Virus record (IMG/VR): IMGVR_UViG_3300037156_000058
Span: 1-64,000 of that record
Reading direction: 5' to 3' (one strand)
Length of the DNA stretch: 64,000 bases
Source: a virus
In this document: positions 11,030 to 37,707 of the stretch, piece by piece
Layout: each line of letters opens with the position of its first letter
How positions within the stretch are numbered: position 1 is the first letter of the stretch
Program-made: the position numbers and the translations under genes
Notes under the pieces: generated by a model
What the model saw: the letters and a program-made list of their open reading frames with translations, nothing else
Told to the model about the DNA's origin: nothing
The model's database searches: none

Positions 11030-11248
11030 ATGAACGATACTGCCGCAATCGCGATAGCTGAAGCTGTGGCGGGTTTGGATCTCACTCCGCCAGATTCTAA
11101 ATGCCCGGTTGAGGTCTGCCGGAAATGCCGGAAGAGCCCAGTTTGGTCCCTTTCAACAAGAGGAATCTGTCTTAAATGCTGGCGGTTACGCAAGCGCTCA
11201 GAATCGACTCCCTGGCCCACTGATTCCTTGCTGACTGAATCCCGTTAA
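11030..11248 (+). CDS. 72-residue zinc-finger protein, end of the (+) run
   Basis: AGGAGAAGGT precedes ATG 11030. Cys at VCRKCRK and GICLKCWRLRK form a probable zinc ribbon with a basic face. Its 3' end overlaps the end of the convergent lysozyme gene by 77 bp, so the two operons read into each other. Confidence 0.55.
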   Translation: MNDTAAIAIAEAVAGLDLTPPDSKCPVEVCRKCRKSPVWSLSTRGICLKCWRLRKRSESTPWPTDSLLTESR

Positions 11249-11741
11249 GCTCCGGCCGCTCGATTCGGTGAGATTCCCGAGCTGCAGTAACGTAGTCGCC
11301 AGCGTCCATAGCAGACCACATGCGCGGAAATGGCTTGCCGGTGTTGTACAGGCAATCCAATGCGGCATCTCGACACCCTGACGGCCATGCGCTCGATTGC
11401 GGATGCAGGCGCCCGAGCAGAGCAATCGTCTTGCCCATGTCGGCAGCTTTCAGGGCGTCGATCTGCGCATCGGTCAGGCGGCAGACCGTAGCTTCCTCAT
11501 ACGCTCCCGCTGCGAGGCCGGGAGCCATTCGTTTTACATTGGCCCAGTCTTCCTCCGCCCACTCGTCCTGGAACGCGCCTACGGCGTCCAGCCTGGTAAA
11601 CAGGGCATGCCCGACGCCGCAGGTTGGAGTCCCCCCGCCGTCTGCGTAAATCCAGCGCGACCGTCCTTCGAACTCGTCGAGCGCTTCGGACCAGCTCATC
11701 GGCATTATCGAGCCATCCACCACCGGAGCCTGACTACTCAC
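11172..11741 (-). CDS. Endolysin, T4-type lysozyme (GH24)
   Basis: 189 residues, start at 11741 fixed by ATGA overlap with the gene upstream. E25, D34 and T40 in DEFEGRSRWIYADGGG and PTCGVGHA have exactly the spacing of the catalytic E, D and T of T4 lysozyme. A late RNQWARESIL matches the conserved C-terminal part. It would cut the peptidoglycan glycan chain to release progeny. No signal peptide, so a holin is needed; candidates lie just upstream. The 3' end overlaps the convergent gene at 11030-11248. Confidence 0.85.
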   Translation of the reverse strand: MSSQAPVVDGSIMPMSWSEALDEFEGRSRWIYADGGGTPTCGVGHALFTRLDAVGAFQDEWAEEDWANVKRMAPGLAAGAYEEATVCRLTDAQIDALKAADMGKTIALLGRLHPQSSAWPSGCRDAALDCLYNTGKPFPRMWSAMDAGDYVTAARESHRIERPELNGIQSARNQWARESILSACVTASI

Positions 11742-13950: not shown

Positions 13951-14006
13951 CGCGGGCCGTCCAGTTCGTGTGCGAGGTTCAGCATGGCGAGTAGGGCGCG
14001 GATCAT
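13947..14006 (-). CDS. 19-residue micro-ORF linking two genes
   Basis: MIRALLAMLNLAHELDGPR, with ATGA overlaps at both ends (with the lyase stop and the next start). Probably a relay for translational coupling across a 53-nt gap. Confidence 0.35.
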   Translation of the reverse strand: MIRALLAMLNLAHELDGPR

Positions 14007-17000
14007 TGCGCCACCATCCCGCCAACTACAGTACTGGCGGATACCAGCCACGACCCGGAGCCGTTGCCGAACGTGATCGTGCTGCCGTCTGAGAGGGTGA
14101 CGGTAACCACTCCAGTTGTATACGCCACGACCGCGGTCGTTGCTCCCGTGCCGTCCAATGCAGCAGGGGAGAAGGTCGTTACCTCCGGCTTCGTGGCGTC
14201 AGCCGTGTAGGAGTTTGTGGCGGTCGTGTAGTTGGCCGGAATCGACGGCATGGAATAGTAAATCCATGATCCCCCAGCGGTAAAAGCTGGACTCCCTGCT
14301 GCATTTGCCTCGGTGTTCGTCGGCCCATTGAATTTGACGATCACTTCTGAGCGTTGCCCCTTCATCGTGAATCCGGAGTTGGATGCAGAACTGACAGCAG
14401 GGAGGGACTGAAGGTACTCTACGATTGCCCCCGCGCCGCTGGGTGTAATATCATCCAGCACGAATGCGAATCGCGACGCCCCACTGGTATACATCACCCA
14501 AGTCCTTCGCATAGCTGTGACGCCTGCCGAGTAGGCCGCGCCACACACCATCGGGACCACCTGCCATGATCCGTTGTTACTCGCAGTTCCGAGCGTCGTC
14601 ACGTTGGTATTCCCGCCGCCTACCGTGTTTCCATCCACCGAAAGCGAATTGTGATTAATCGCGGCTGGCAGGTTGTAGCCGGGGTCCAGAAGGAACTGCT
14701 CTCCCTGTGAGGACAAAGTGAACGTACAGGTGTCGTTCTCGTGGTGCTGTTGAGTTCCGACTTCATGATTAGAAGAACCTTTCAGTCCGATGTATAAATC
14801 AGGGGTAGCCGTGTTAGTCTGCGATTTGATCGACCCCCATTGTGTTGAGGTGAGCAACGAAGGGCTTGGTAAGTTTACCTTGCTGATCGTGGTAGAAGGA
14901 TTGGATGAGCGCCACATCATTGCGTACTGCGCGTATGGCAGTACATCGGATAGTGTGGCCATCCAGCGGTTGCCGCCCATCACGCAGTTTAGCGGCGCGC
15001 AATATGTCGCGTTGGGCTGCTGCGCCGCATCCTCTAGGTACATGAACCAGTCAGCCATCCAGGTTAGTTGCGCGTTTCCAGTGCGCTGCCCAATGTCGAT
15101 CATCTGCGGAATCAATTGCACCAGAGGCTGAGAATCATTAAACGTGGTTAGCGCCGCCCCGTCCCAAAGCGTGTTGACGAAGTTCGCAACGTACTGGTAG
15201 TTTGTTGCGAAGAATCCGGGGTCGGCAGGGGAGTTTCCGACCAGCGTATTCGTGTTGATCCGCGCCCGAGCATAGACATCATAGGCTGTCGTTCCGTACT
15301 GAGCATAAAGAATCCCCTCGACATACCCGCCGTCTGGCATCCAGGTATAACCAGCCCACGTTAGTAATTGTGTGTCGATGGCAGAAAGCAGGATTTGCGC
15401 CGACGTGTTCACATAGGTAGTTGGCGCAGCATATCCACGAAGCGACTGAAGGCTGCTGTAGAGCGCCAATAAACAAACCCCACCACCTCCCTGCGTGATC
15501 ACCACACGATTAGGCCATGAGTGGTCGGAACCCGATCCGCTGGGGTCATTTGTCTTTGCATAGTAGAAATAGTTAACCGCGTTCTGGAGAAATACTTCAT
15601 ACTGTGCGCGCTGAGTCGGAGTAAGTGACGGGAAGAGAAGGTCGTACATCTGCGCGACAGGTAGAGCCGCATTGTTAAGTCCAGCGGGGAAACCGTCCCA
15701 GTATAGATTCACGGTATCCAGCGGAAGCTGGTTATAAAAATCCCCTTGGTTGGCCGTCGTGATGCCAGCGCTGTAAGCCGTCAGGTCCGAAGCAACTCCG
15801 CTCAACAGGTATCTGTAACCATAGTCCATAAACGCCATATTGCGAAACGATGGATTTCCCCCGTTGATCGTGTCGTAAGTTATCGCCCGAGTCACAGCAT
15901 CGGTGTAGTTTATGTACGCAGGGTTGATCCAACGTGCCTGAATAGCAGGAAGACCCGCCGCATTGAACTGTAGGTATGGGTGACCCGAATACCCGAAACT
16001 GATCTTGCCTGTGGCCGGATACGTCCCGCTGCTGGTGGAGTCGTACACCGTGGTAGCCCCTGAGTTGCACTTCAGCATGATAGCGGGGCTTCCTTGCGAT
16101 CCATTGGGAACTGCCACCGAAAGGCTTGTTGGGTTATTATAGGTGACCGTCCCTGAGATTCCCGAAAACGTGACCGTGCATGTTGAGTCGAACCCAGCTC
16201 CGGCGAACTGCACTGTAGCGTCTGCCGAGTTCGCGGGAGTCGGAGGCACCTCAAATGGCATGATCGAGTACAGGATCGGAGCGGAGTAGTAAATGCCGGG
16301 ATAGTACTCGCTGTCGATGTTGTTGCAGATCAGGTGTAGCCCGTACGTCGAGCCATTGGATTCGGTCGGTAACGCCACCGTAATCAGAGAAGTGCTGACG
16401 AAGCTGGGTGTGGCTGTCTGGACCGTACTCCCCTGCCCGATGCGAACCGAACAGCTTGCACCGGAGTTGAAATTCGTTCCGATCAGATTGATCGTCTGTC
16501 CGGTCTGAAAACTTCCGCCTGCCGCAGCCGGGGAGATGCTCGTGACCGTCGCAGGGGTTCCTCCTGTGACTCCAGCCGCCACGCGGATGTTCGTAAACAC
16601 ACCGCCGGTATCGTAGCGTGACCCGACACCACCAGTGGTTCCCAAAGTATAGAGAGAAACGTACTGGAAAGACTTTGCCTGGTAAGCCGATGGAATCGCC
16701 ACGGTGTAGGAGTAGTACGGGACGGACCCATTCTTGTAGTTATCCGCCATCATGTTGAACGTCAGGTTATTCGATCCGTCTCGAATGATCTGAATCGTCC
16801 ACTGCCAATTGGGGATCTGTGCCGATTCGTTCGCGCTCTGAGGCCAATTAAAGGACGTGTAAGCAGGGCCGAACGATGTCCCGAGTTGCTGGCCGACAAT
16901 CAAATTAGTCGTCGTTGCGTAGTTCACAGGCAGGTTGCCGAGCCACATGCCCATGAAAGGACCTCCATTCATGTTTGCGAAAATAGACACGTCCAATGCT

Positions 17001-17341
17001 CCCATTGACGCAATCGGGGCGGTCGTAAGCGCGATCCCAACAGTTCCAGCAAGGAGGTAGTCCACGTATGCGTAGTTGTGAGTCGGGTAGATATCAGCCT
17101 GAAACGTGAATGACTGAGTACCAACCGCGCATGGCATGGAGGCCGTCCCTACGCCACCTTGGGCGATGGTAGACATACCTGGAGAGGCCGACCCCGACCC
17201 TTGATATACCATCGCCGCTCCATCGCTGGATGCGAGTGTCCATTGCGCGGGGAGCGTGGCCGCGTCAAAGTGTTCTGAGCAGTAGTTGGCTGGCGTGGCC
17301 TGGCCATAGCAGACCGCGATACCAGCAAAAAACAACCACAT
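14003..17341 (-). CDS. Heparinase II/III-like polysaccharide lyase with signal peptide
   Basis: 1112 residues from ATG 17341, just after the previous stop (a TTG at 17365 is less likely). Begins MWLFFAGIAVCYGQA, a Sec-type signal. Residues about 25-260 are a lectin-like beta domain. Around 260-340 is an IPT/TIG immunoglobulin fold (VTSISPAAAGGSFQTGQTIN), followed by a helical barrel (SGSDHSWPNRVVITQGGGGV) and then the C-terminal lyase sandwich (EVGTQQHHENDTCTF, then LDPGYNLPAAINHNSLSVDG). The last two match heparinase II/III-like lyases. Likely a depolymerase acting on host capsule or exopolysaccharide. Confidence 0.75.
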   Translation of the reverse strand: MWLFFAGIAVCYGQATPANYCSEHFDAATLPAQWTLASSDGAAMVYQGSGSASPGMSTIAQGGVGTASMPCAVGTQSFTFQADIYPTHNYAYVDYLLAGTVGIALTTAPIASMGALDVSIFANMNGGPFMGMWLGNLPVNYATTTNLIVGQQLGTSFGPAYTSFNWPQSANESAQIPNWQWTIQIIRDGSNNLTFNMMADNYKNGSVPYYSYTVAIPSAYQAKSFQYVSLYTLGTTGGVGSRYDTGGVFTNIRVAAGVTGGTPATVTSISPAAAGGSFQTGQTINLIGTNFNSGASCSVRIGQGSTVQTATPSFVSTSLITVALPTESNGSTYGLHLICNNIDSEYYPGIYYSAPILYSIMPFEVPPTPANSADATVQFAGAGFDSTCTVTFSGISGTVTYNNPTSLSVAVPNGSQGSPAIMLKCNSGATTVYDSTSSGTYPATGKISFGYSGHPYLQFNAAGLPAIQARWINPAYINYTDAVTRAITYDTINGGNPSFRNMAFMDYGYRYLLSGVASDLTAYSAGITTANQGDFYNQLPLDTVNLYWDGFPAGLNNAALPVAQMYDLLFPSLTPTQRAQYEVFLQNAVNYFYYAKTNDPSGSGSDHSWPNRVVITQGGGGVCLLALYSSLQSLRGYAAPTTYVNTSAQILLSAIDTQLLTWAGYTWMPDGGYVEGILYAQYGTTAYDVYARARINTNTLVGNSPADPGFFATNYQYVANFVNTLWDGAALTTFNDSQPLVQLIPQMIDIGQRTGNAQLTWMADWFMYLEDAAQQPNATYCAPLNCVMGGNRWMATLSDVLPYAQYAMMWRSSNPSTTISKVNLPSPSLLTSTQWGSIKSQTNTATPDLYIGLKGSSNHEVGTQQHHENDTCTFTLSSQGEQFLLDPGYNLPAAINHNSLSVDGNTVGGGNTNVTTLGTASNNGSWQVVPMVCGAAYSAGVTAMRRTWVMYTSGASRFAFVLDDITPSGAGAIVEYLQSLPAVSSASNSGFTMKGQRSEVIVKFNGPTNTEANAAGSPAFTAGGSWIYYSMPSIPANYTTATNSYTADATKPEVTTFSPAALDGTGATTAVVAYTTGVVTVTLSDGSTITFGNGSGSWLVSASTVVGGMVAQ

Positions 17342-17343
17342 CT

Positions 17344-20172
17344 TTACTGGCACATGAAGCTCCAATGTCCGAGAATAGCGCTGGTTCCCCCGGAGGATGT
17401 CACTTTGACTCCTATGCGGTCGCCTTTAGTGATCGTTCCCGTACTGCTCGAATCAAGCAATATGACCCCTGCGGAAGTACCGGCGCTGATAGTTCCACTC
17501 ATAAGCGTTGTGTCTGATGTTCCAGTGGAGCCCATGTCCACAACCGATATAGTGGTGGTTACGCCACCTGTCTGTGTTCCTGCAAGGGTAAGTTGCAGGT
17601 ACGTGGCAGAACAACCACGCGGGAACGCCACAAAAGCATAAGGCTCCGTCCCATTGCTATATCCACCAAACGGAGCGTAGTAAGTAGTGCTTGCATTAGT
17701 TCCCTCAATCGCTCCCTGCACAATGAATGCCGAGCCGGACGCGGGGGTTATAGACACTCCGAATTCTGTTAGTGAAGGAACCGTCGCAGCGCCCGGCTCG
17801 AACTCCATATCAATATAATGCCCTTGACTAACCGATACGGTATGAGTTAGATCAGCATAGGCGGCAGGGCTTGTGTCTGTTGTTGCCGGGGTAACGGTTA
17901 GGGTTGTTCCAAGCCCGTTGTCATTCATCACCGGGTTTACCGTGAAGACGTTCGTGGGAGCCGTTGTGTGCGAGTACATTAAAGCCTGCATGGTTCCCGA
18001 GAAGGGAAGCGGCGTGGCGTACTCCAGTTCGGTGGGTCCACATCCACCGGAAAAGCCGCAATATGCAACCGTGCTGGCGGTCATGGCAAATGCTTTTGCA
18101 TTCGTCAAGACCGAAGTCATAAGCCCGCTGTCGGCTAAAAACTCCGCAGTTATGCCACTTATATTAGGAGTGCCCCCGGAATTTTGCTTAGCCGACGCAA
18201 ACCCCCACTGCGATCCTTGATCTTCATGCCAATACAATGCGTTTGATTGCGTATAAGAGCCTACTCCAGCATTGGGCTGCACTATCACTCCACCGGGAGA
18301 CGTTCCGTTTATGGCGCTTCCGAATCCGGATGCCGCACAATCTACATCAGCCCCGAATCGTAAAGATGAACCAGCATTAGCAGCAGGAAGTGATATCGCT
18401 ACGTTCCGAAAGTACCCGGCTGATGGCCATTGCAAAACTGACCCTGAGGCCTGACATGGCGACGACCCGCTTGCTGCGACAGTCCCTGGCCAATAATTCC
18501 CATTGCCGGAAAAAAGGTTTCCGTATCCGACAATACTCCCAGATGCCGTTGACGATGGCCCTGTAGCGCACGTCGGGCAGGCAATAGTGCCAGCTGAAGT
18601 GATCGGGCCGCCGGTGATTGGTCCGGTTGTGGCGACACTGGTTACGGTTCCAGACCCACCACCACCCCCATTCAAGAGTGTCCATGCCCCGGTCGCCACG
18701 GACGTGCAGGCGGGAGCAGCCGTTCCGCTGGCCGCTGCACACCAGTAATCGTTATGGTTTGTCGTGTCAGAGAACAGATCACCAGGGAGATTGCCCGTTA
18801 CGCTGCCCGGTGCAGCAGTGCCAAAGAATTTCTGAGCCAGAAGTGTTTTATCCGCCGCGCATGTACCGCTGGTTGTGATCGCACCGCCCGTTAGGCCGCC
18901 ATTGCAGGTGATGCTAGATATTCCGCTCCCGGCAGCCCCGGTTGCACCTGTAGCCCCGGTTGCACCTGTAGCGCCCGTGGCTCCATTAGCCCCGGTCTGA
19001 GAAATGTAGTAGTTCGCTCCATCCGGTGCGACCTCAACCAGAAATCGTGGGCACCCGCCGGCTGCGGTACAGACTGCAATCGGACCATAAGCGGCTTGCC
19101 CGTTCGCCGTCGCTCCATTCAACCCCACGGCTAAAGTCTGCGTCTGCGACTGATTCATGATCGCCAGCTTGCAATTCGTTCCGCCGAGGGTGATAGCCGA
19201 CGCAGGGAGTGAGAACGTAAGGCCGCTGCCTGAGAAGGGAATCGTAGACCCGCAGTCCGATGCCTGCGCCGTGTAGTTGGTGGTCTGCACAGCCTCAACC
19301 GCCGTGGCAATCCCCTGCGGCCCAGCGGGGCCGACGCTGAGAATGTTGAATTGAGTCCCGTCATAGCCGAGGTTGTAAAGATTCCCTGTTCCGGCTCCGA
19401 CCGTAATCGTGTTGAGGGCCAGAGGAGCACCCGCGCTGTAGATATTCTTCGCTCCCAGCGTCGATATATCGAGCGTGGCCGCGCCGCTGTTGTTCACGTC
19501 AACCTTCAGGCTCACGGTCATGCCTGCCGTATAGGATGTAAGGGCTGGTGACGGCGTGCAGGTATAAGTAGTCGCGCTGGATGATGCTGTTTGGCAGTAG
19601 GTGCCGCCTGTGACGGAACCCCCTCCCCCACTCAGCACCTGATAGTTCGCGCCGTCGCTGAAAACCTGTTTGCTGGTGTGTGCGGGAACCGTCAACACGC
19701 TGCCGCTGATGTCTGCTGTTGGGCCACCATAGAACGTGCTCGTGGTCGCGGTGACTGTGAGAGAGCCCGCGCCGATATTGTTCACTACTACAAACCAGCC
19801 CGCCGCGAATCCCGTCGTGCCGGCCTGCGCGATGGTCCACGCCGCTGCCGTGTTCGTGGTCAGGGATGTACCGCAGTCGCCCGTCACAATTGGGTAGGAA
19901 CCATTGTGCGCGGCAGTGGCAAGCGTTTCGGATGCCGCTGGAGTTGTCGTGCCCGTCGCTACCGAAATACCGCACGATCCGCTAACCGAGGTCACTGTAC
20001 CTGCCGTTGGCGTTGCCCATGAGCATGGCGGCGCCGTTCCGCCAGAATTTGCCTTCAAGACTTGGTTCGTCGTAGCGGAGTTTGTAACGCTCTCGCATGG
20101 ACCTGGATTCTGTGCCATCGCAAGAGCGGATCCGAAGGCCATGAGGGCCAGGAGAATTATTAACCGTTTCAT
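17344..20172 (-). CDS. Tail-fibre-like protein with signal peptide and collagen-like segment
   Basis: 942 residues. ATGA overlap with the preceding gene. The N terminus MKRLIILLALMAFGSALAMA then Q is a textbook signal peptide. The body is Gly/Thr/Ser/Ala-rich beta repeats of fibre type. A collagen-like GAT repeat (GATGATGATGATGATGAAG) lies near residue 400, and TSVATTGPITGGPITSAGTI matches phage fibre repeats. C-terminal domain may bind receptor. A cleavable export signal on a phage fibre is unexpected. Confidence 0.65.
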   Translation of the reverse strand: MKRLIILLALMAFGSALAMAQNPGPCESVTNSATTNQVLKANSGGTAPPCSWATPTAGTVTSVSGSCGISVATGTTTPAASETLATAAHNGSYPIVTGDCGTSLTTNTAAAWTIAQAGTTGFAAGWFVVVNNIGAGSLTVTATTSTFYGGPTADISGSVLTVPAHTSKQVFSDGANYQVLSGGGGSVTGGTYCQTASSSATTYTCTPSPALTSYTAGMTVSLKVDVNNSGAATLDISTLGAKNIYSAGAPLALNTITVGAGTGNLYNLGYDGTQFNILSVGPAGPQGIATAVEAVQTTNYTAQASDCGSTIPFSGSGLTFSLPASAITLGGTNCKLAIMNQSQTQTLAVGLNGATANGQAAYGPIAVCTAAGGCPRFLVEVAPDGANYYISQTGANGATGATGATGATGATGAAGSGISSITCNGGLTGGAITTSGTCAADKTLLAQKFFGTAAPGSVTGNLPGDLFSDTTNHNDYWCAAASGTAAPACTSVATGAWTLLNGGGGGSGTVTSVATTGPITGGPITSAGTIACPTCATGPSSTASGSIVGYGNLFSGNGNYWPGTVAASGSSPCQASGSVLQWPSAGYFRNVAISLPAANAGSSLRFGADVDCAASGFGSAINGTSPGGVIVQPNAGVGSYTQSNALYWHEDQGSQWGFASAKQNSGGTPNISGITAEFLADSGLMTSVLTNAKAFAMTASTVAYCGFSGGCGPTELEYATPLPFSGTMQALMYSHTTAPTNVFTVNPVMNDNGLGTTLTVTPATTDTSPAAYADLTHTVSVSQGHYIDMEFEPGAATVPSLTEFGVSITPASGSAFIVQGAIEGTNASTTYYAPFGGYSNGTEPYAFVAFPRGCSATYLQLTLAGTQTGGVTTTISVVDMGSTGTSDTTLMSGTISAGTSAGVILLDSSSTGTITKGDRIGVKVTSSGGTSAILGHWSFMCQ

Positions 20173-20552
20173 CGAGTGGCCTTAATCACAGGAACATCGC
20201 CCGCGGCGAAAGTCGAGATCAGGACGCGGCGAAACGGAGAAGCGCCGGAATCAGTGTAGGCTCCGTTGCCGGTCGTCAGTCCGATTGTGGCAATCGTCAG
20301 GTACTGAGCAGCAACGTCATTCCCTGCTACTTGCACCTCCACCACGGAACCATTCGGGCACCTAGAGACATTGAACGTAATCGGATACTGCCCCGCATCG
20401 TGATATCCCTTCGAGAACGAGATCGACGCAGATCCGGAGACAATCGTTTCCGTGCCGTCGAGGAGCGTTAGACTCTGCCCCGCTTCGAGACTGGCGATGT
20501 TGAGGCCAGCGCCTCCTGTGTTTGAGCCGGATTGAGGGGTGCTGTAGAGCAT
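20169..20552 (-). CDS. 127-residue beta-structured virion protein
   Basis: ATGA-coupled to both neighbours. Alternating strands (GQSLTLLDGTETIVSGSASI, QYPITFNVSRCPNGSVVEVQ) suggest a small beta sandwich, perhaps an attachment or tail-associated protein. No family name. Confidence 0.55.
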   Translation of the reverse strand: MLYSTPQSGSNTGGAGLNIASLEAGQSLTLLDGTETIVSGSASISFSKGYHDAGQYPITFNVSRCPNGSVVEVQVAGNDVAAQYLTIATIGLTTGNGAYTDSGASPFRRVLISTFAAGDVPVIKATR

Positions 20553-22021
20553 TATTTTTTCTCCTTTATATTTGGGGCAATCTGCCCAATACGGCCTGTC
20601 GTTGGGCGCCGCAGTGTCCTGCCTGTTTGGTTGACGCCCTTCGCGAGTGCTGCCTGCGCAACTGGATCGGCTGCAATTTCCGGCAATATAAGGCCAGCCG
20701 CTGCTCCGAGAGGGCCAAACTCGTGACCGCCATAAAGAGCGGCCGCCAGCGCCCCGGTTCTAGCCGTACCGCGGTTGAATACGCGGGGAAGAAGCGACGG
20801 TCGCAGGGCGTTCATCTGCGATGCGCGCTCAACGGGAATGCCGCTCGATATCCGCTGATTAAGTTCCGCGCCTTCAGGCGCAACTCGGTCAAGTTCCGTA
20901 TCCATCGCGTTGTATGCGCCGCGTGCGGTAGGCATGTCGATGATGCCGGGATGAAGTTGGTTCCAGGTAGTGAAGTCTTTCCCAAATTCGGTTTTCATCC
21001 TGCGAAGTTGGGCTGGGTCTTGAAAGGCTGAGATTTTAATAGGGCCGGATGGTCCAATTGTTCCAGGCGGAGGCGTGTTTATCGGACCAACGTCGCCCGC
21101 GAAATTCTGTCCGGGATCAGTCAACTGTTGACGCATCTGCTGCAACTCAGGGACACGCCCCCTGCCGAACGGAGGAGCATATGTGCTGTTCCCTGCCTGC
21201 GCCTGCGTGATGCGTGCGTCGATCACGTCACGGGCTGGCGTAAGGCTTCCCTGCGCGGAAGAGTTGGCGTACACCTGGTCAACTTGCCCCGTAAGGTCGT
21301 TCACTCTTTGTCGCGCACGAGCTTCAATTGTTCCAGGACGAATCGCTCCACCCGTTTCGTCGAGCGCAAAACGACCGGGAGTTTTCCCGAACATCTTATC
21401 GGCCAATTTTATCTTTAGGGCGTGCTCCATCAAAGGCTCTGCCGTTCGCATCAGGCCAGCGCCTGTTCCGCGTGAAATCTCAGGAGCAGCCACCGTGGAG
21501 ATTAAACCGGCTCCGGACCCCAATCCGCCAGCCACGTCCCCGCTACCGATTTGATCGCCAGCGTTGGCAGCGGCAGGGCCGACAAGGGGAATCATTCCCG
21601 CCAGTCCGTGGCCGAATGCTGACGACGCACGCTCAACTCCGTTCATACCGCTGAATTCGCCTTTGCCTTGTGCCGCCTGTTTCGCCTTTGAAAATTGGTC
21701 TATCTGCGGGTCGATCAGGTGAGTTCCGAGGGTGCGCGATAGTCCGATATTTGGGTCCAGCGCTTCTTTACCCATTTCGATTATTCCCGGAACTGGGTTG
21801 ACGGCACTGGCGAAATTTGAGACGAATCGCTCAGTTGGGCCTGATCCTTCGGTGCCAGGAGTCAGACTGAGCGGCTTATCTGGTACGGAGCCGCCTTCAC
21901 GTTTCGCAGCCAATGCGGTCAACGGGTCTTGACTTACTCCCGACGTAGAAACAGGTGCACCGGTAGCAGCCCCTCCATTTGAGGCACGCTGTGCGGCGAG
22001 CTGTTCCAGTCGGTCGGCCAT
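20552..22021 (-). CDS. 489-residue internal-virion/ejection-like protein
   Basis: Low-complexity N terminus (LEQLAAQRASNGGAATGAP), then Gly/Ala-rich hydrophobic helices (GHGLAGMIPLVGPAAANAGD, GLGSGAGLISTVAAPEIS) and a helical core with Arg/Gln-rich segments. Glycine/alanine-rich long proteins next to tail genes are typical of ejected internal proteins of short-tailed phages. Assignment is by context. Confidence 0.5.
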   Translation of the reverse strand: MADRLEQLAAQRASNGGAATGAPVSTSGVSQDPLTALAAKREGGSVPDKPLSLTPGTEGSGPTERFVSNFASAVNPVPGIIEMGKEALDPNIGLSRTLGTHLIDPQIDQFSKAKQAAQGKGEFSGMNGVERASSAFGHGLAGMIPLVGPAAANAGDQIGSGDVAGGLGSGAGLISTVAAPEISRGTGAGLMRTAEPLMEHALKIKLADKMFGKTPGRFALDETGGAIRPGTIEARARQRVNDLTGQVDQVYANSSAQGSLTPARDVIDARITQAQAGNSTYAPPFGRGRVPELQQMRQQLTDPGQNFAGDVGPINTPPPGTIGPSGPIKISAFQDPAQLRRMKTEFGKDFTTWNQLHPGIIDMPTARGAYNAMDTELDRVAPEGAELNQRISSGIPVERASQMNALRPSLLPRVFNRGTARTGALAAALYGGHEFGPLGAAAGLILPEIAADPVAQAALAKGVNQTGRTLRRPTTGRIGQIAPNIKEKK

Positions 22022-23749
22022 TTAGTACGTCCACCCGTCTTCGGTAAGCATCTTCTTTGCTTTCGCCGGATCGTTGCCAGTCATGTCCAGATAATGCTCC
22101 ATCGTAGACTGGCTGGGAACCCGATCCGGCCCGTCATCGGTAGATCCCTGATACTTCGCCTCACTTCGTGCCTTAACGACGTCCTCAGACAGCCGGGAAC
22201 GGCCAAGATCGACCATCTGTTTCATCTGCGGAGCGGTCAGTGTCAACCCAGCGAGATAGCCGTCTTTGTCGAACTTAGCCTTCATGCCCTGGAGCCACGG
22301 CCGAGATTTTTCAGCTTCCGAGATAATCGCCTGATTGATGCGCGCGCCCTTCGCGAGTCCCATTGTCATGCCAAGATGATTTGCCAGCAACGAGAGCATG
22401 GCTTGCTGGTCGTGGTTTTTCACGGCATCGTCGTAATTCTTCGTCATCACATTGACGCGCTCTGCGGAGTCCATCGCGGGAGTGAACGCCTTGAATGCGG
22501 CGGCCTTGACGCCCTGCTCGTCCTTATGTGTCCGGTTGGCCTGTGCTAATTCGGATGTCTGCTTGCGGAGTTCGGCCGTCTGTTTTCGGTTTTCGTTGGT
22601 GCCGAAAGCAGACTCTTCGCCCTGAAGCAACTTATCTGTGCGGTCGAAGTCTTTTTGCGTGGCGTCGGCAGGCAGAACGTAATGCGCCGGAAGCGCGGCG
22701 CCGGGATGAAGCACCTGGTAGCGTGCGGTCATTGCCTGATTGATCTGATCCACGCGCGGACCAAGTGGCTTATCCCCCTCGGTAACGGTGGCTGGCTTGG
22801 CTGCATTTTCAGCCTTTATGAATTCAACCGGATCTTTGTCTTTGTTCTCCGGACGTGCCTGCCACGCCTCGAACGGAGTCTTGGGCGCCGCATCAGGCTT
22901 GGCTTTCCCGGCCTGAAGTACCTGTTTTACCGCCGGATCAAGATTGGGGTCGTTCGGGCCGTGAATCTTGCCGAGAGCGTCACGATATCCGATATAGCTT
23001 CCATCTCCAGCCTTGAAAAACTCCTCGTCGTGAGGCTTACCTACTGGATTCCTTAACGCATCGGTTTCCGCCTGCTCGTGCCCAGTCTGAGCCGCTTCGT
23101 GCTCTTGTTTCGCCACAGATTCATTCGCGCCCTGCTCAGACTTCGCGGCACTCTCCGCGTCAGCCACAACGCCCTGGTGGTAGCCTTCGGTCCCCGGCAA
23201 TGCAGCCTCAAGTCCGGGAGTAGCGAACCTTCCAACCGCGTCAAGTACCTGCAACGGAATCCGAGCCCACGGATTATGAATCTGGCCGATACCACTACGG
23301 CCAGTGTCGGCATGAGTGTGCGCCTGATCGCCATGGAGCGGTGCTTTCGTCACCCGCGATAATTCGTCGTACATCGGCGTAGACGGAGGTTGAAACTTCG
23401 CGGGAACTGGGATAGAGCCAGCGACTGCTGGTTTTGCTGCTGCCTGTGAAACCGGAATAGTACCGGGAGCCGTGATTCCTTCAGGCATCCCCATCGGCGC
23501 GGATTGGCGCTGCGGAAGCGGAATTGCGCCAGTGTCCGGAGCGGGGGCCGCGCCAGATTGCAGCGGAATAGAGCCCTGTACCGGACCCTCAGACGGAGGA
23601 GCGGAAGTATCGCCGGGACGGAGCGTACCCGTCATTGCGATGTGACGATCCACGCCCTGCATGAGCGCGTCTTTCGCGTGCGGGGTCAGGCGAATCAGTT
23701 CGTCCGCTATCGGGTTTCCGGTTTGCGTCTCCTGCGGATATGTGGTCAT
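22022..23749 (-). CDS. 575-residue internal-virion-like protein
   Basis: Start ATG 23749 (MTTYPQETQTGNPIADELIR) preferred over TTG 23773, which overlaps the previous gene. N-terminal 150 residues are Pro/Gly/Ala-rich with repeated SIPL/GSIPV motifs. The rest is helical and highly charged with Gln/Lys/Glu-rich coiled coils (NRKQTAELRKQTSELAQANR). Likely an internal core or ejection protein by size and position. Adjacent to 20552 without a gap. Confidence 0.5.
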   Translation of the reverse strand: MTTYPQETQTGNPIADELIRLTPHAKDALMQGVDRHIAMTGTLRPGDTSAPPSEGPVQGSIPLQSGAAPAPDTGAIPLPQRQSAPMGMPEGITAPGTIPVSQAAAKPAVAGSIPVPAKFQPPSTPMYDELSRVTKAPLHGDQAHTHADTGRSGIGQIHNPWARIPLQVLDAVGRFATPGLEAALPGTEGYHQGVVADAESAAKSEQGANESVAKQEHEAAQTGHEQAETDALRNPVGKPHDEEFFKAGDGSYIGYRDALGKIHGPNDPNLDPAVKQVLQAGKAKPDAAPKTPFEAWQARPENKDKDPVEFIKAENAAKPATVTEGDKPLGPRVDQINQAMTARYQVLHPGAALPAHYVLPADATQKDFDRTDKLLQGEESAFGTNENRKQTAELRKQTSELAQANRTHKDEQGVKAAAFKAFTPAMDSAERVNVMTKNYDDAVKNHDQQAMLSLLANHLGMTMGLAKGARINQAIISEAEKSRPWLQGMKAKFDKDGYLAGLTLTAPQMKQMVDLGRSRLSEDVVKARSEAKYQGSTDDGPDRVPSQSTMEHYLDMTGNDPAKAKKMLTEDGWTY

Positions 23750-23754
23750 CGCGG

Positions 23755-23982
23755 TCAGAAATAATCCTGCCAATTTGTCTTAAAAATCCCGTTGGGAGAT
23801 GCGTCTTCCTGCTGCTGTGGGCCTGTAGGCTGCTTATTCACGGGCATTCCAGCAAGTAGAGCTCCCCTGTAATTGTCTTGCTGCGGAGGGTACTGAACCT
23901 GAGAACCAAAAACGTCTGGCAAAAACGCATGGAGTCCAGATTGAATGGCACCAGGGAGCAATGTTCCAAGTAAAGAGGCCAT
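23755..23982 (-). CDS. 75-residue small virion-region protein
   Basis: Begins MASLLGTLLPGAIQSGLHAF (amphipathic helix), then Pro/Gln-rich, ending NWQDYF. Sits 2 nt after the previous gene. Unknown function, likely a structural partner of the long proteins downstream. Confidence 0.55.
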   Translation of the reverse strand: MASLLGTLLPGAIQSGLHAFLPDVFGSQVQYPPQQDNYRGALLAGMPVNKQPTGPQQQEDASPNGIFKTNWQDYF

Positions 23983-23984
23983 AT

Positions 23985-24542
23985 TTATTTACCCTTCTTG
24001 AATCCAGCCGCTGAGGTTGCCGCACCACTCAACGCCCCAGTAATGTTATTGAAGGCGTCCCAAGAAGCGTTCTCTTCCCCCGTGTTAGCCTGGACCAAAG
24101 GCGCGACTTCCCCGAGCGCGTTATTCGCCCCGCCAACATCAGTCCCGTAAATCCCCTGGAGTCCAGACAATCCAGCCTGCTGTTCTTTCGCCTTCAGTTC
24201 CGCGTTCTGAGCGTCGATATCCTGACCTGTTCGCGCCAGAGCCTCGGTGCCGGAGCGTGCGGAATCTGCGATTGCTGCCGCCGGAGTACCTGCGTTGCGA
24301 GTCCTGCCAGCTAGTAAAGCCCCGCGTCCCGTCGCTCCAGCCGTAGCGCCACCGGCCGTTTCCATCGCGTGCGTGTTCATCGACGCGAGATCGGTTGGCG
24401 CGAACCCGGCGGGGTGCGCTGCCTCGGTGGTAAGTTGCGGCATGAGAGACGAGAATATCCCGTTGGATTTTCCCGTGAGGGCGTTGGAATTTGTCTGCGC
24501 GGTAGCCGAAGCTGCCTGCGCGGGGTCACTGCCTCTTCCCAC
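23985..24542 (-). CDS. 185-residue Ala/Gly-rich virion protein
   Basis: Rich in Ala, Thr and Gly with helical segments (QDIDAQNAELKAKEQQAGLS) and a C-terminal SGAATSAAGFKKGK. Resembles small internal or ejection proteins of short-tailed phages in composition. No family recognised. Confidence 0.55.
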   Translation of the reverse strand: MGRGSDPAQAASATAQTNSNALTGKSNGIFSSLMPQLTTEAAHPAGFAPTDLASMNTHAMETAGGATAGATGRGALLAGRTRNAGTPAAAIADSARSGTEALARTGQDIDAQNAELKAKEQQAGLSGLQGIYGTDVGGANNALGEVAPLVQANTGEENASWDAFNNITGALSGAATSAAGFKKGK

Positions 24543-24553
24543 TTTTCACCCCC

Positions 24554-24943
24554 TCAGATCCGCTTACACCAGGAATCCCAGTTGCGAACCCACCCGAAAT
24601 GGCGGCATAGCCATCGCCCAAACTGCTTTGATATCTCTGGTGGAAGAAACGCATTGGCCTCATTATAACCCTTTGCATTCAACTCCGCATGAACTGAATC
24701 GTGGAGCATTCGGATTGCGGACATTCGGGCGTGCGGCGGGCCAAAGTCACTTGACAGGAAGTAAATCTGCACAATGCGCTCCGCTATCCCGGCGCATAGC
24801 GGTTCATCGTTATCGTCCACAACCACGCAAGCCGATTCGATGTGCTGGCCGTTCAGGTCGGGGAAGTCGTACTGAAGACCGGACGCAGCGTGGAATTTAC
24901 GGAGTTTCGGAATGTCGTCGTTGCGGAGCTGGCGTACGGTCAT
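24554..24943 (-). CDS. GNAT-like acetyltransferase fold protein
   Basis: 129 residues. Begins MTVRQLRNDDIPKLRKFHAA, the GNAT beta1-alpha1 start; VVVDDNDEPLCAGIAE gives beta2-beta3; a helix and AFLPPEISKQFGRWLCRHFG fits the last helix before the terminal strand. The acetyl-CoA loop (Q/RxxGxG/A) is not obvious, so it may be degenerate. GNAT-like genes next to internal-protein genes occur in several short-tailed phages. Substrate unknown. Confidence 0.55.
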   Translation of the reverse strand: MTVRQLRNDDIPKLRKFHAASGLQYDFPDLNGQHIESACVVVDDNDEPLCAGIAERIVQIYFLSSDFGPPHARMSAIRMLHDSVHAELNAKGYNEANAFLPPEISKQFGRWLCRHFGWVRNWDSWCKRI

Positions 24944-24983
24944 TTGAGGTCAATTCAGGCTTGTGCCGCCCTGACTGCGGGTG

Positions 24984-27623
24984 TTACTGCGGAACTGGGT
25001 AGTAATTCGGGTTAGCCAAAGTCCCCGTGCAGGTGTAGCCGAAATTCGTTCCGGACATGCTCCCGGATGAGGTAACTGTTACCTGTGTATTGGATTCCGC
25101 TGACACGTAAAACGTGAGATTCGAGGAATCCATAAAATTGCAGGCCGGGGAGTTTACGAATCCGGTTCCAGCGAAAACAATAGTGCAGGCGGTCACAGCT
25201 CCGTCAGGAGATATCCTGCCCTGCGTATTTGTCGAATACGACGCTATCGAAGGGGCAGATCCACATGAGCTAATAGTAGGCATCAAAGTCGGTACTGGGT
25301 AGTAGAAAGTTCCGCACGGCCCGCTGCACGTGTTGTTCTGGTCGTATCGAATCTGGCTCACAGCCGGAGTCAGCCCCGTGTTGTCCTCAAACGCAATGTG
25401 AAGCGCGTTACCAGCGTCATTTCTCAGTGTGTTGCTATCGACTTCCACGCTGTATGTGCCTGCACCGTTAAGTAGGATGCCAGCATAAGATCCTCCGCCT
25501 CCGTAGCGGAGCGTGTAGCTTGCGCCTGACGCCACAGCCGCAAGGGGGGAGCTCAGCGCGATACTCGTGGCACTGCTGTAGCTCGCCACCGTGTAGGTAG
25601 TCCCGTTGACGGTGAACCCTCCGCCCACCATGCCTACTGAGAACGTAGTTCCACTCCCGGTAATAGCGGTCGATCCTTTTGTGCCGCTGACTGTTCCCGT
25701 TGAGTACGTTGTACCACCGGCGACGTTGCAGTTGTAGCAGTAGTTGTGCCCAATATATCCGTCCACCACCGATGAAAACGTCCAGCCTCCGTTGTTGGAG
25801 TTGGCGCAGAAATTGTCCGTGAACGAGAATCCAGTCATTGAGCCCATGGCTCCGCAGTCGTTGCTGTTCGTAACAGACACCGCCTTGACGGAGTTGTTTA
25901 CTCCGGATGTCGGGTTGTCATAAGAAAACAGTAAAGGGGACACCCCAGACAGCAGGATTGGATTTCCGGTAACATTATTCAGGGTTGAGTCGTGGATATG
26001 CACGTTACTGCACGGTAGGTTCATGACCGTTCCATTATATGGGATCTGTAAGGTAGACCCCAAGCACGTAATTCCGCCCTGCGAGGAATGCGCTATGTCG
26101 CTGATCCACACGTCACCGATATCGATGTCGGATACGCCCTCCATGAAAATGGCGTTTTGCGTTCCGTATCCGCCGCAGTTTCCGTCAACAATGCATCCTG
26201 CCGTCGGGTCGCCTTGAATAGTGATCCCGCTTACTGACGCCTTCGCATGGGGTGTCTGCACAAACGATAGATTACTGTTCTGATAGACCTCGTTAGAAAC
26301 GGAAATGTCAGAACAAAAGAAGTTGATTCCAAGGCCAATTGGGTTCTGGGTGTAAGTATTTCCGTGGATATTATACCCGTATTGATAAACAGGGGAAACC
26401 GTGCTGCCCATACCGCAACCGACTGATACTCCGAACCATTCATTGTGATCGAACGTCGAGTTGGAGATCGTCACGTTTGAAGCATTGTTGATTTGCAAGC
26501 CGACGACCTGACCGCGGGCAACGTAAAGATGGTCGATGTCCACCTTCGATGGCCCAACCTGCGCATTACCTGTCGGGTTGATTACGATATCGTACCCAGT
26601 AAAGGGCGTCCCCGTGGCATTCAAAGAGTCGATCCCAAAATCGTGCAGGTACACTGCTCCTGTAGTCTGGATCGCGATCATATTGGCCGACTGGGCGAGA
26701 CAGGATGAGTGCGTCGTGAACATCGTTGACTTCGGGCCGTCACCGTAGAGGGAAATTGTGGCTCCGCTTGTTGTAGTAGGCGCCACGTTGCAAATTCGAT
26801 AAGTGCCAGCCGTAAAGTGAAGAGATGCGCCCGATGCCGCCGCCACCGTGATCGCGTTCGAAACCGCAGTGGTGGTGTTCGTTGAGTTGTCGCCAACTGC
26901 CCCGAACCACTGACCCTCAATAGGGGAAGTACTGGGAAGCACCACCGTTCCCCCCGCCGACAGATCGAAGTGCTGCGTAAGGGTGCCAGAGAAGGAACCG
27001 GTCAAGGTAACCGTTTGGCCGGATGCCGGTTTGATGATGCCATTGGCGACCGCCTGGATATTACACGCCAAACTTTGCGTGGTAAGGCCGCTCCATGTCT
27101 TCGTGACGTACAGAGTGCCTGCTCCAGCCGCCGTACAGGCCAACGGCAGTGTCGAATAACTCGCGTCGCACGTCACACCCAGCGGGCACCCGGCAGACGC
27201 TCCCACGTTGACAGGGTACGGCCCATAGGTTCCACCGCCAGCATTTGACGGAGGACGAAGATAAAACGAATATTGGCCTGGAAGCAACCACGCTCCGAAC
27301 TCGCCTTGGTTGTTGGATTTTGTCGTGCATGGATTCGAGGTAGTCGCTGGCGTCAACTGCGCGGTCGTCGCGCACGGAGTTACGGCGGTGAAACTGGTGT
27401 AGGTGGTCGCTGGGCTGGCGAGACATAGCGCCAGAGTGGAAGCAGTCCCTGAGCAGAAATTCACAGTCGCGCCGGGGATGGCAAGTACCGGGCAAAGCGA
27501 ACCTCCAGAGCACCCCGAATTCGTCGTGTAGGTATTCGAGCCGAAGCGCACAGCCTGAGCATGAAGCGCAATCGGGGCGACGAGAAGTGCAATCAAAATC
27601 AGTGAGTATCGCATTGTGGTCAT
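24984..27623 (-). CDS. Pectate-lyase-like tailspike with signal peptide
   Basis: 879 residues, AGAGG just before ATG 27623. N terminus MTTMRYSLILIALLVAPIAL then HAQA is a signal peptide. Around residue 235 the stretch WFGAVGDNSTNTTTAVSNAI then LHFTAGTYRI is the hallmark start of the Pectate_lyase_3 right-handed beta-helix, continuing as repeated coils (VTISNSTFDHNEW, DIDIGDVWISDIAHSSQGGI). Such spikes bind and often cut surface polysaccharide. Second enzyme-like spike beside the lyase at 14003. Confidence 0.75.
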   Translation of the reverse strand: MTTMRYSLILIALLVAPIALHAQAVRFGSNTYTTNSGCSGGSLCPVLAIPGATVNFCSGTASTLALCLASPATTYTSFTAVTPCATTAQLTPATTSNPCTTKSNNQGEFGAWLLPGQYSFYLRPPSNAGGGTYGPYPVNVGASAGCPLGVTCDASYSTLPLACTAAGAGTLYVTKTWSGLTTQSLACNIQAVANGIIKPASGQTVTLTGSFSGTLTQHFDLSAGGTVVLPSTSPIEGQWFGAVGDNSTNTTTAVSNAITVAAASGASLHFTAGTYRICNVAPTTTSGATISLYGDGPKSTMFTTHSSCLAQSANMIAIQTTGAVYLHDFGIDSLNATGTPFTGYDIVINPTGNAQVGPSKVDIDHLYVARGQVVGLQINNASNVTISNSTFDHNEWFGVSVGCGMGSTVSPVYQYGYNIHGNTYTQNPIGLGINFFCSDISVSNEVYQNSNLSFVQTPHAKASVSGITIQGDPTAGCIVDGNCGGYGTQNAIFMEGVSDIDIGDVWISDIAHSSQGGITCLGSTLQIPYNGTVMNLPCSNVHIHDSTLNNVTGNPILLSGVSPLLFSYDNPTSGVNNSVKAVSVTNSNDCGAMGSMTGFSFTDNFCANSNNGGWTFSSVVDGYIGHNYCYNCNVAGGTTYSTGTVSGTKGSTAITGSGTTFSVGMVGGGFTVNGTTYTVASYSSATSIALSSPLAAVASGASYTLRYGGGGSYAGILLNGAGTYSVEVDSNTLRNDAGNALHIAFEDNTGLTPAVSQIRYDQNNTCSGPCGTFYYPVPTLMPTISSCGSAPSIASYSTNTQGRISPDGAVTACTIVFAGTGFVNSPACNFMDSSNLTFYVSAESNTQVTVTSSGSMSGTNFGYTCTGTLANPNYYPVPQ

Positions 27624-27630
27624 TTTACCT

Positions 27631-29214
27631 CTACGGGATCGACTCGATCAGCATCCAGTTGAAAGTGGACGTGTCGAGAACGTTAGTGCTTGTCACAACG
27701 AAACCCACCCCGGCAGTGTTTACGACGGTCAGGCTGCCGATGTTGGCGAATACGCCACCGCCAGTATCCGTCACAAATGTTCGCGTGTTTGCCGTCACTG
27801 ACGTATTCGCTACCGTCAATGTTCCACCAACCAAGGCACCTGTTCCGATTCTGGAGTTCGTGCCGGCCTTGACCTGCAATCCCTTGCCGAGCGTGATTGC
27901 TTTGATGTCACCAGTCACAGGAAAATCGCCGGACGCTTGCGCCACGGCAGGATTTGGGTATGTGCCACTGAGATCGCCGCCCGCGGAGCCGGTTGGAGGG
28001 CCACCGCCAGTTCCACTGACCGCCGCCGTGATCCGCCCCTTGGAATCTACCGTCAGGCTGGTATTGGTGTAGTTATTTGGCGTTACAGCCGTGTTCGCAA
28101 GTGTCAATGCACCGCTAGCGGCAAGCGTGGCATCGCCCGACATCGTTTGCTCAACGGGAAGATTACCCGTGCTCCCGATGTAAAACTTGTTGGTCGCTAG
28201 CGCCGCTGCCGTTGGAACCCCGTGCGTGTCTGAGCCAAGAACGGTCGCACTGATCGGAGCAATTTGCCCGATGAGTTGGAACCGCGTGCCATCGTACATC
28301 AGGAGGTAGCACCGCCCGGTCACCAGTTCCCCGCCAGCCAGCGCAACGGTCCCGTTCTTCGTGATCGCCTTTGCTCCAATGGAGTTTACGTTCAGCGTTA
28401 CCGCCGAACTGTTGTCGTGAATCGGAATATAGCGAACAAAGAAATCCACCGCCAGTGCCGAATACGGAACCGCCGTTACGCCCGTGATCGCATCCCCGGT
28501 CCCTGCGATGGCTGACAGGGTTTCGCACGGAGAGATAACCGGCTCGGAAATAGAGACTGATCCGCCGCCGGGGGTGCTGCCTCCGGCCGTGACAGCTCCA
28601 GTGCCCACCAGGGACGGTGAGCCAAGCCCCCCCCGCGCCAGTTTTAGCGTATTATCGAATCCACTGTTTACCGTGCGCTTCGGTACAGGACCTGGACCCA
28701 CGCCGCCCTGCCCTGGGGCGCCAGTCCCACTTCCCTGAGATGGCAGGTACGCGGGAGGGCCGATGGAGCCGCCGCCGCTCACTGGGATAGGAGTCGCTCC
28801 GCCGTGAACGATAATCGGACCCGCCCCGCTCCCAGGGACAGCATTGTAGGCTCTCACGTACCGAGTGCCGTTGCCGATAAATTCGGTATGACTCCGCGAA
28901 TCTCCGAGGTAGCGTATCTGTGGGTCAGTGAATTGCGGATTATCCGCGTGCTCGATATAGTTGATCGCTCCGCGTTGCAGCCCTGCGCCATTGTGAATTA
29001 TCGAAACATGAAGCACGCCGTTCTGTCCAATAGCCTGAACGTCCTGAATCGGAGGCGGCAAGTTAGGCTGCCCTTGCGGGTTGACGTTGCCCTGCTGCTC
29101 GGTATTTGAAGTCTGCCGCTCGATAGACTTCATCATTTGGTAAAAGCGTGCCCCGGCATCGGGTACGCCATCGATTACCAACTTTCGGAGCCAGTTCAAC
29201 TGAGATATTTTCAT
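27631..29214 (-). CDS. Tail-fibre-like protein
   Basis: 527 residues from ATG 29214 (ATGA overlap). No signal peptide. N-terminal 100 residues helical/Gln-rich, then a Gly/Pro hinge (GTGAPGQGGVGPGPVPKRT) and a long fibre part with the phage repeats FYIGSTGNLPVEQTMSGDAT and LTVDSKGRITAAVSGTGGG and SGTYPNPAVAQASGD. These are common in side-tail fibres. The N-terminal part probably attaches to the tail hub encoded upstream. Confidence 0.7.
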   Translation of the reverse strand: MKISQLNWLRKLVIDGVPDAGARFYQMMKSIERQTSNTEQQGNVNPQGQPNLPPPIQDVQAIGQNGVLHVSIIHNGAGLQRGAINYIEHADNPQFTDPQIRYLGDSRSHTEFIGNGTRYVRAYNAVPGSGAGPIIVHGGATPIPVSGGGSIGPPAYLPSQGSGTGAPGQGGVGPGPVPKRTVNSGFDNTLKLARGGLGSPSLVGTGAVTAGGSTPGGGSVSISEPVISPCETLSAIAGTGDAITGVTAVPYSALAVDFFVRYIPIHDNSSAVTLNVNSIGAKAITKNGTVALAGGELVTGRCYLLMYDGTRFQLIGQIAPISATVLGSDTHGVPTAAALATNKFYIGSTGNLPVEQTMSGDATLAASGALTLANTAVTPNNYTNTSLTVDSKGRITAAVSGTGGGPPTGSAGGDLSGTYPNPAVAQASGDFPVTGDIKAITLGKGLQVKAGTNSRIGTGALVGGTLTVANTSVTANTRTFVTDTGGGVFANIGSLTVVNTAGVGFVVTSTNVLDTSTFNWMLIESIP

Positions 29215-37496: not shown

Positions 37497-37707
37497 GGGG
37501 ACGCAGCGTGTCGTAATCGTTGATAGGACTGACGCGACCCTTATCGTTATCCCGGAACCAATTCCTCAACCGGGTCGCAGCCGGGTAACGATCCACCGCG
37601 GGCCGCACATCCCCCGCCATCCCCTGATCGCCGGGAAGGGAAACGTCGTCGTTGTCGGTCATGCGGTAGCCATGCATGTCTGACATAATAGCACGGGTTG
37701 GGGTCAT
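37489..37707 (-). CDS. 72-residue polar protein, unknown
   Basis: Start ATG 37707 from the ATGA overlap with the endonuclease stop. Acidic and polar (MTDNDDVSLPGDQGMAGDVR), likely partly disordered. The longer frame to 37857 is a shadow. Unknown function. Confidence 0.5.
   Translation of the reverse strand: MTPTRAIMSDMHGYRMTDNDDVSLPGDQGMAGDVRPAVDRYPAATRLRNWFRDNDKGRVSPINDYDTLRPHA

What the first reader, a model, noticed from the sequence alone, without database searches (positions are those of the whole stretch)
14003..27623. Three fibre/spike genes carrying Sec signal peptides
Seen: the proteins at 14003 (MWLFFAGIAVCYGQA), 17344 (MKRLIILLALMAFGSALAMA) and 24984 (YSLILIALLVAPIALHAQA) start with cleavable-type signals, while the fibre at 27631 does not. 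Known: phage virion parts are normally assembled in the cytoplasm without signals. Inference: exported depolymerases or adhesins that alter the host surface (superinfection, biofilm, prophage benefit), or host-derived genes captured for spikes, or surface-assembled particles.
Basis: partly seen in the sequence, partly recalled or inferred. Interest (0 to 1): 0.75.

Follow-up and report, generated by a model that had tools for sequence, protein, structure and literature searches.

The report
Phage tailspikes built for export
A family of viruses of soil Acidobacteria appears to send its receptor-binding spikes out of the cell's interior through the host's ordinary secretion route, where they gain disulphide bonds, although virus parts are normally built inside the cell; if true, these spikes must be added to the particle late, outside the cytoplasm.

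Summary
The window is part of an IMG/VR phage record (68.7 kb). Its relatives include prophages in Granulicella and other Acidobacteriota. The three genes (all on the minus strand) begin with Sec/signal-peptidase-I-type signals and no alternative start removes them, though the signal at 14003 is weak. Across about 55 related loci, 56 of 65 genes of 300 aa or more in the spike block carry such signals; almost no head, hub or ejection gene does.

Export and cleavage are supported independently of signal prediction. Complete signal-bearing proteins are rich in cysteine (median 1.97% against 0.66%), and 53 of 59 have an even number in the mature chain (p about 1e-10; controls 46%). When the signal itself holds an odd number of cysteines, the mature part is still even in 20 of 21 cases. 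In the module that follows the signal, cysteine pairs are kept or lost together.

That module (29 aligned spikes, first the one at 24984) resembles tailspike head-binding domains: its top PDB matches are Pam1 and Pan3 tailspikes, though scores are moderate. Best reading: true tailspikes, exported, disulphide-bonded, then added to virions outside the cytoplasm. Presence in virions is not shown. I found no published precedent for a tailed phage.

The parts
24984..27623 (-). Main exported tailspike, 879 aa: signal, head-binding-like module, variable receptor-binding or enzymatic part; 28 Cys
   Evidence: distal part has a weak tail-fibre match (PHROG 1980)
27558..27623 (-). Sec signal peptide of the 24984 spike (likely cleavage HA|QAVRF)
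   Evidence: sequence; family consensus A|Q(x)VRxD in A2 and A5
27189..27557 (-). Mature N-terminal module resembling podophage tailspike head-binding domains, with Cys pairs 57-67 and 84-99 (extra pair 38-44)
17344..20172 (-). Second exported fibre, 942 aa, 22 Cys; weak collagen-like stretch; residues 213-279 resemble a domain of another phage's signal-bearing fibre that is also found in the signal-less fibre at 27631
20113..20172 (-). Sec signal peptide of the 17344 fibre
14003..17341 (-). Third signal-bearing protein (ORF to TTG at 17365): two TIG domains and a weak heparinase II/III / DUF4962-like part; probable polysaccharide lyase; 11 Cys in the mature chain (odd, an exception)
27631..29259 (-). 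Fibre without a signal, 542 aa, K1-lyase C-terminal domain, 3 Cys: in-window contrast
29211..32810 (-). Large tail-hub-like virion protein, conserved in all relatives; used to find them
22022..23773 (-). Ejection-protein-like gene, 583 aa, no Cys, no signal (function inferred from position)
20552..22021 (-). Ejection-protein-like gene, 489 aa, no Cys, no signal (function inferred from position)
20169..20552 (-). Small conserved protein next to the signal-bearing fibres, no signal; possible adaptor (speculative)
38756..40024 (-). Major capsid protein, conserved in the relatives
11172..11741 (-). Endolysin (phage lysozyme family, weak match), downstream of the spike block

Best explanation
These are receptor-binding tailspikes and fibres of an Acidobacteriota phage that are made as Sec precursors. 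Supported by sequence evidence: signals on nearly the whole spike block, removal of the signal, pairing of cysteines in the mature chain, and a head-binding-like domain directly after the signal in one spike family. Inferred: late in infection the chains cross the inner membrane unfolded, lose the signal, fold, trimerise and form disulphides in the periplasm, while heads and tails assemble in the cytoplasm; when the holin and endolysin open the cell, the waiting spikes dock through their N-terminal domain onto otherwise finished particles. Not shown: that the spikes are in virions, and the moment of docking.
For: Signals: 56 of 65 genes of 300 aa or more in the spike block, against 10 of 336 genes upstream, several of which are spikes. 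Disulphides and cleavage: 53/59 mature chains with an even Cys number, 20/21 when the signal holds an odd number, median 1.97% against 0.66% Cys; non-signal genes 167/362 even. Cys pairs kept or lost together in 29 modules, no half pairs. Virion anchor: the module is shared by spikes with unrelated distal parts. AF2 model pLDDT 78.5, about 90 in the core; top VIA matches 7eeq_A 'Tailspike head-binding domain' and 9vyg_o 'Tail spike protein', with P22 tail chains among the first 14 rows; viral matches are mostly phage pectate lyases, EPS depolymerase and tail spikes. Profile match to cytosolic tailspike N-termini: E 1.1e-4, score 30.8 against at most 19.9 in 60 column shuffles. Gene order ejection protein then spike, as in Pan3 and PspP-H6/1. 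Genes nearly abut or overlap within the structural operon.
Against: No proteomics shows the proteins in particles. Structural matches are moderate (Z 5.8 and 5.5 with pilins at 5.0; Foldseek PDB E above 0.05 at best), and the fold (CnaB/transthyretin-like sandwich) is common. Two of the three window proteins (17344, 14003) lack the recognised module, and 14003 looks like a lyase and has an odd Cys number. Stand-alone copies exist in two bacterial genomes without clear phage genes nearby (L050, L051). No signal predictor beyond a script was available. Proteins were counted as independent although some are related.
Confidence: 0.55

Rival explanations
1. The proteins are exported and disulphide-bonded but are not virion parts: they are secreted depolymerases or adhesins that thin the capsule, ease progeny escape, or mask receptors against superinfection.
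For: Signals and disulphides fit any exported protein. 14003 looks like a heparinase II/III-type lyase. Some relatives have a GDSL esterase part. Stand-alone copies sit in two genomes. A tailspike-like bacterial enzyme, WceF, is Tat-exported and modifies the cell's own polysaccharide (PMC7949094).
Against: The first spike carries a head-binding-like module shared by spikes with unrelated distal parts. If these were not spikes, several phages would lack any obvious spike. The genes lie inside the late structural operon.
Confidence: 0.25
2. Mixed use: the module-bearing spike is a virion part docked after export, while further signal-bearing genes (17344, 14003 and like genes) are free secreted enzymes, or branch spikes that dock on the first one.
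For: Only one N-terminal family (36 of 84 signal proteins) has the anchor module; the rest are diverse. Branched spike systems are known in other podophages (own knowledge).
Against: The 17344 and 27631 fibres each match the same signal-bearing fibre of another phage over one domain, so 17344 is fibre-like too.
Confidence: 0.15
3. The hydrophobic N-terminus is not cleaved and serves inside the cell, as a membrane tether or hydrophobic plug that inserts into the tail.
For: The signal lies directly before the anchor domain in every module-bearing spike read.
Against: Ala at -1 in 48/62 and Gln at +1 in 43/62, with a conserved mature start Q(x)VRxD. The mature chain is even in Cys in 20/21 cases where the signal has an odd number; the uncut precursor would be even in 1/21.
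Confidence: 0.03
4. Host secreted proteins were captured whole by the phage and kept their signals as relics.
For: Acidobacteria secrete many polysaccharide-active proteins (own knowledge); signals look host-like.
Against: The module is found in 3/396 Acidobacteriota genomes. Signals are kept over deep divergence (hub proteins down to about 30% identity) on nearly every spike gene, with conserved disulphides, so they are under selection.
Confidence: 0.02

Closest known systems
Podophage tailspikes with an N-terminal head-binding domain (P22 gp9; cyanophages Pam1 and Pan3; Xanthomonas phage PBR31)
   Same: N-terminal beta-sandwich anchor, variable distal part, gene following the ejection-protein genes, similar fold by model
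   Different: Known ones have no signal and few or no cysteines in this domain; here there is a Sec signal and conserved disulphide pairs
WceF of Pantoea stewartii (PMC7949094)
   Same: Tailspike-like protein with an export signal
   Different: Bacterial gene, Tat-exported, in a polysaccharide cluster; not a phage structural gene
Lambda Lom
   Same: Signal-bearing gene between the tail spike and tail-fibre genes (PMC12309495)
   Different: Beta-barrel put into the host outer membrane, expressed in lysogens; not a spike
Signal-bearing phage endolysins (fOg44 Lys44, SAR endolysins)
   Same: Tailed phages using host Sec for one of their late proteins (PMC6116005)
   Different: Lysis enzymes, not virion parts
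Filamentous phage coat proteins (own knowledge)
   Same: Virion proteins made with Sec signals
   Different: Those virions assemble in the membrane by extrusion; not tailed phages

Membership tests
Podophage tailspike with head-binding domain | N-terminal beta-sandwich that binds the tail or head | tested here: inconclusive
   Top VIA rows 7eeq_A Z 5.8 and 9vyg_o Z 5.5, P22 4.6; hhalign E 1.1e-4 with clean shuffle control; moderate scores and a common fold
Podophage tailspike with head-binding domain | Conserved N-terminal part, variable distal part | tested here: met
Podophage tailspike with head-binding domain | Gene placed in the structural block next to ejection-type genes | tested here: met
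   ejection role itself inferred
Podophage tailspike with head-binding domain | Present in the virion as a trimer | not testable with these tools
   needs proteomics or cryo-EM
Sec / signal peptidase I exported protein | n-, h- and c-regions with an AxA-type site | tested here: met
   (own script, not SignalP); weak for 14003
Sec / signal peptidase I exported protein | Maturation in an oxidising compartment with the signal removed | tested here: met
   indirect: Cys parity and pair co-loss
Host-captured secreted lyases | Close relatives in non-phage loci of the host phylum | tested here: not met
   (without a positive control)
Heparinase II/III-like polysaccharide lyase (14003 only) | Hepar_II_III_C domain above the curated cut-off | tested here: not met
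   18 bits against cut-off 24; phmmer to 8khw DUF4962 E 5.6e-4

The most novel reading that the evidence does not exclude
A clade of tailed phages exports its whole set of receptor-binding spikes through the host Sec pathway, lets them form disulphides in the periplasm, and completes its particles only outside the cytoplasm, during or after lysis: a split assembly route not known for tailed phages.
Probability: 0.5. Interest if true: 0.9.

Novelty: new variant of a known kind. Interest (0 to 1): 0.76.

Why it matters
Tailed phages are taught as being assembled in the cytoplasm. Sec-exported, disulphide-bonded tailspikes would mean that the last assembly step takes place in another compartment, that spikes from one cell could be shared with particles of another in the same lysis, and that disulphide-hardened receptor-binding proteins can evolve in phages, which may suit acid soils. 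It also gives a simple test (signal plus even cysteine number) for finding exported virion proteins in other phages, and a culturable host genus for the experiment.

Tried and rejected
Direct searches for the 24984 spike and for the hub in the phage collection gave nothing, nor did a consensus of the module. The single-protein scan of viral contigs with the 24984 spike failed, and the module alignment was too diverse for a scan; relatives were found through the hub instead. PHROGs and Pfam give almost no names for this phage. The first AF2 model (16 sequences, pLDDT 64) gave weak matches; it was redone with 29. Foldseek against PDB was weak for both models; the ranking by VIA-align 2 and the viral library carry the fold argument. 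The profile of the module against PDB sequences gave only a chance hit. Tunturi virus genomes (Acidobacteriota isolates, PMC11924767) are not in the collection under PP885684; its main text mentions neither signal peptides nor mass spectrometry. Literature searches found no tailed phage with an exported tailspike; only open-access papers were searched. I first took L027-L032 for spike-less remnants; in L030 and L032 the signal-bearing spike lies upstream of the hub.

Full report
WHAT WAS CHECKED. The window belongs to an IMG/VR virus record of 68,691 bases. The three genes are real long open frames on the minus strand, at 24984-27623 (879 aa), 17344-20172 (942 aa) and 14003-17365 (1120 aa). 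The third is weaker: from ATG 17341 it has no positive charge before the core, and it needs a GTG or TTG just upstream to gain one. The fibre at 27631 has no signal. Spacing is tight (7 bases between 24984-27623 and 27631-29259, overlaps of 4 and 22 bases around 17344), so the genes belong to one late structural run.

RELATIVES AND HOST. The large protein 29211-32810 found 22 related viral loci, then 70 with an alignment, and prophages or phage-like clusters in Acidobacteriota genomes, including the isolates Granulicella sp. S156 and Granulicella mallensis. The major capsid protein (38756-40024) is shared by 20 of 22 records. The host is therefore most likely an acidobacterium (Terriglobia).

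A CLADE-WIDE PATTERN. In the relatives, the long genes after the two ejection-like genes nearly all begin with Sec signals, in runs of two to six. Counted over about 55 loci, 56 of 65 genes of 300 aa or more after the first signal-bearing gene have a signal; the nine others are replication genes of a side clade, an integrase-like gene and doubtful frames. Upstream of the hub only 10 of 336 genes score, and several of these are spikes in other gene orders. The predictor is a simple script, not SignalP.

DISULPHIDE AND CLEAVAGE SIGNATURE. Export can be tested without trusting the signal prediction alone. Complete signal-bearing proteins have a median of 1.97% cysteine against 0.66% in the others (Mann-Whitney p 3e-15), and 53 of 59 with any cysteine have an even number in the mature chain (p 8.8e-11). 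Among non-signal genes 167 of 362 are even; among those with four or more cysteines, 121 of 214. In 21 proteins the signal itself contains an odd number of cysteines; in 20 of them the mature part is even, so the uncut precursor would be odd. This says that the signal is removed and that the mature chain pairs its cysteines. One further exception (L064) becomes even if cut two residues later. The window's 24984 and 17344 proteins have 28 and 22 cysteines; 14003 has 11 and is an exception; the hub has 8 in 1199 aa and the ejection-like proteins none. p values treat related proteins as independent, but their distal parts are mostly unrelated.

THE MODULE AFTER THE SIGNAL. The first ~140 residues of the 24984 spike are shared with spikes of other phages whose distal parts are unrelated (36 of 84 signal proteins by N-terminal clustering). 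The mature start is conserved as Q(x)VRxD directly after the cleavage site. In 29 aligned modules the pair at columns 43/45-55 is complete in 28 and absent in one; the pair 72-87 is complete in 26 and absent in three; no sequence has half a pair; an extra pair is shared only by the window and L040. One related sequence without a signal, in L081, also lacks the pairs, a single but telling contrast.

LIKENESS TO HEAD-BINDING DOMAINS. Known podophage tailspikes carry an N-terminal domain of similar pattern without signal or cysteine pairs (records, several annotated as tail spike, some directly following an ejection protein gene). A profile comparison gives E 1.1e-4, score 30.8, with the motifs in register, against at most 19.9 for 60 column-shuffled controls. 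An AF2 model from 29 sequences (pLDDT 78.5, core about 90) has as best VIA-align matches the Pam1 'Tailspike head-binding domain' (Z 5.8) and the Pan3 'Tail spike protein' (Z 5.5), with P22 tail chains at 4.6 and 4.4. Gram-positive pilin and carboxypeptidase domains of the same general fold score nearly as well (up to 5.0), so this is support, not proof. In the viral library the best matches are mostly phage pectate lyases, an EPS depolymerase and tail spikes.

HOW IT PROBABLY WORKS. Spikes are translated late with the other structural proteins, exported by Sec, processed by signal peptidase I, and folded with disulphides in the periplasm. Heads and tails form in the cytoplasm. At lysis the two meet and the spikes dock by their N-terminal domain. 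Export, cleavage and disulphides are supported here by sequence statistics; the anchor domain is moderately supported; docking and its timing are inferred. That tailspikes can be added last to finished particles is known for P22 (own knowledge; not found in the papers read).

RIVALS. The main rival is that they are secreted enzymes or adhesins rather than virion parts. This is a fair reading for 14003, which has TIG domains and a weak heparinase II/III or DUF4962 likeness. A mixed case is also likely. An uncleaved hydrophobic anchor is contradicted by the parity test, and recent capture of host genes by the rarity of the module in 396 host-phylum genomes.

NOVELTY. Searches of the open-access literature found no tailed phage with exported tailspikes. 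The nearest precedent is a bacterial, Tat-exported, tailspike-like enzyme (WceF, PMC7949094). Tailspikes themselves are well known, so the class is a new variant; the assembly route it implies would be new.

Noticed in passing
L028-L032 (Acidobacteria/Terriglobia MAGs); L030:4322-12685, L032:4547-12916: A phage-like cluster (hub homologue of about 900 aa, signal-bearing spike upstream) recurs in several Acidobacteria MAGs next to similar host genes (NAD synthetase-like, secreted proteins): possibly a long-resident prophage or gene-transfer-agent-like element.
   Followed up: partly
L050:10766-14182 and L051:10810-14256: Stand-alone signal-bearing spike genes with the module in two bacterial genomes without clear phage structural genes nearby; L051 has an integrase-like gene about 4.5 kb downstream.
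   Followed up: partly
window 52460-53212 (-): 250-aa serine recombinase matching only the N-terminal part of large serine integrases (PHROG 95) and DNA invertases; a short or broken integrase, so the phage may be temperate.
   Followed up: no
window 37704-38717 (-) and 48503-49243 (-): Homing-endonuclease-like genes within the structural block: endonuclease VII-type and GIY-YIG with NUMOD3.
   Followed up: no
window 24554-24943 (-): Conserved 129-aa protein in nearly all relatives between the fibre and ejection genes; looks by eye like a small acetyltransferase but matches no family; role unknown.
   Followed up: no
L014:16418-17008, L016:18784-19356, L018:7098-7718: A side clade lacks the long signal-bearing spikes in the fetched stretch but has a ~190-aa signal-bearing protein ending in an aromatic residue, which may be a small outer-membrane barrel (Lom-like?).
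   Followed up: partly
L081:3836-4501: A spike N-terminal module without signal and without the conserved cysteine pairs, just before a signal-bearing spike gene in the same phage.
   Followed up: partly
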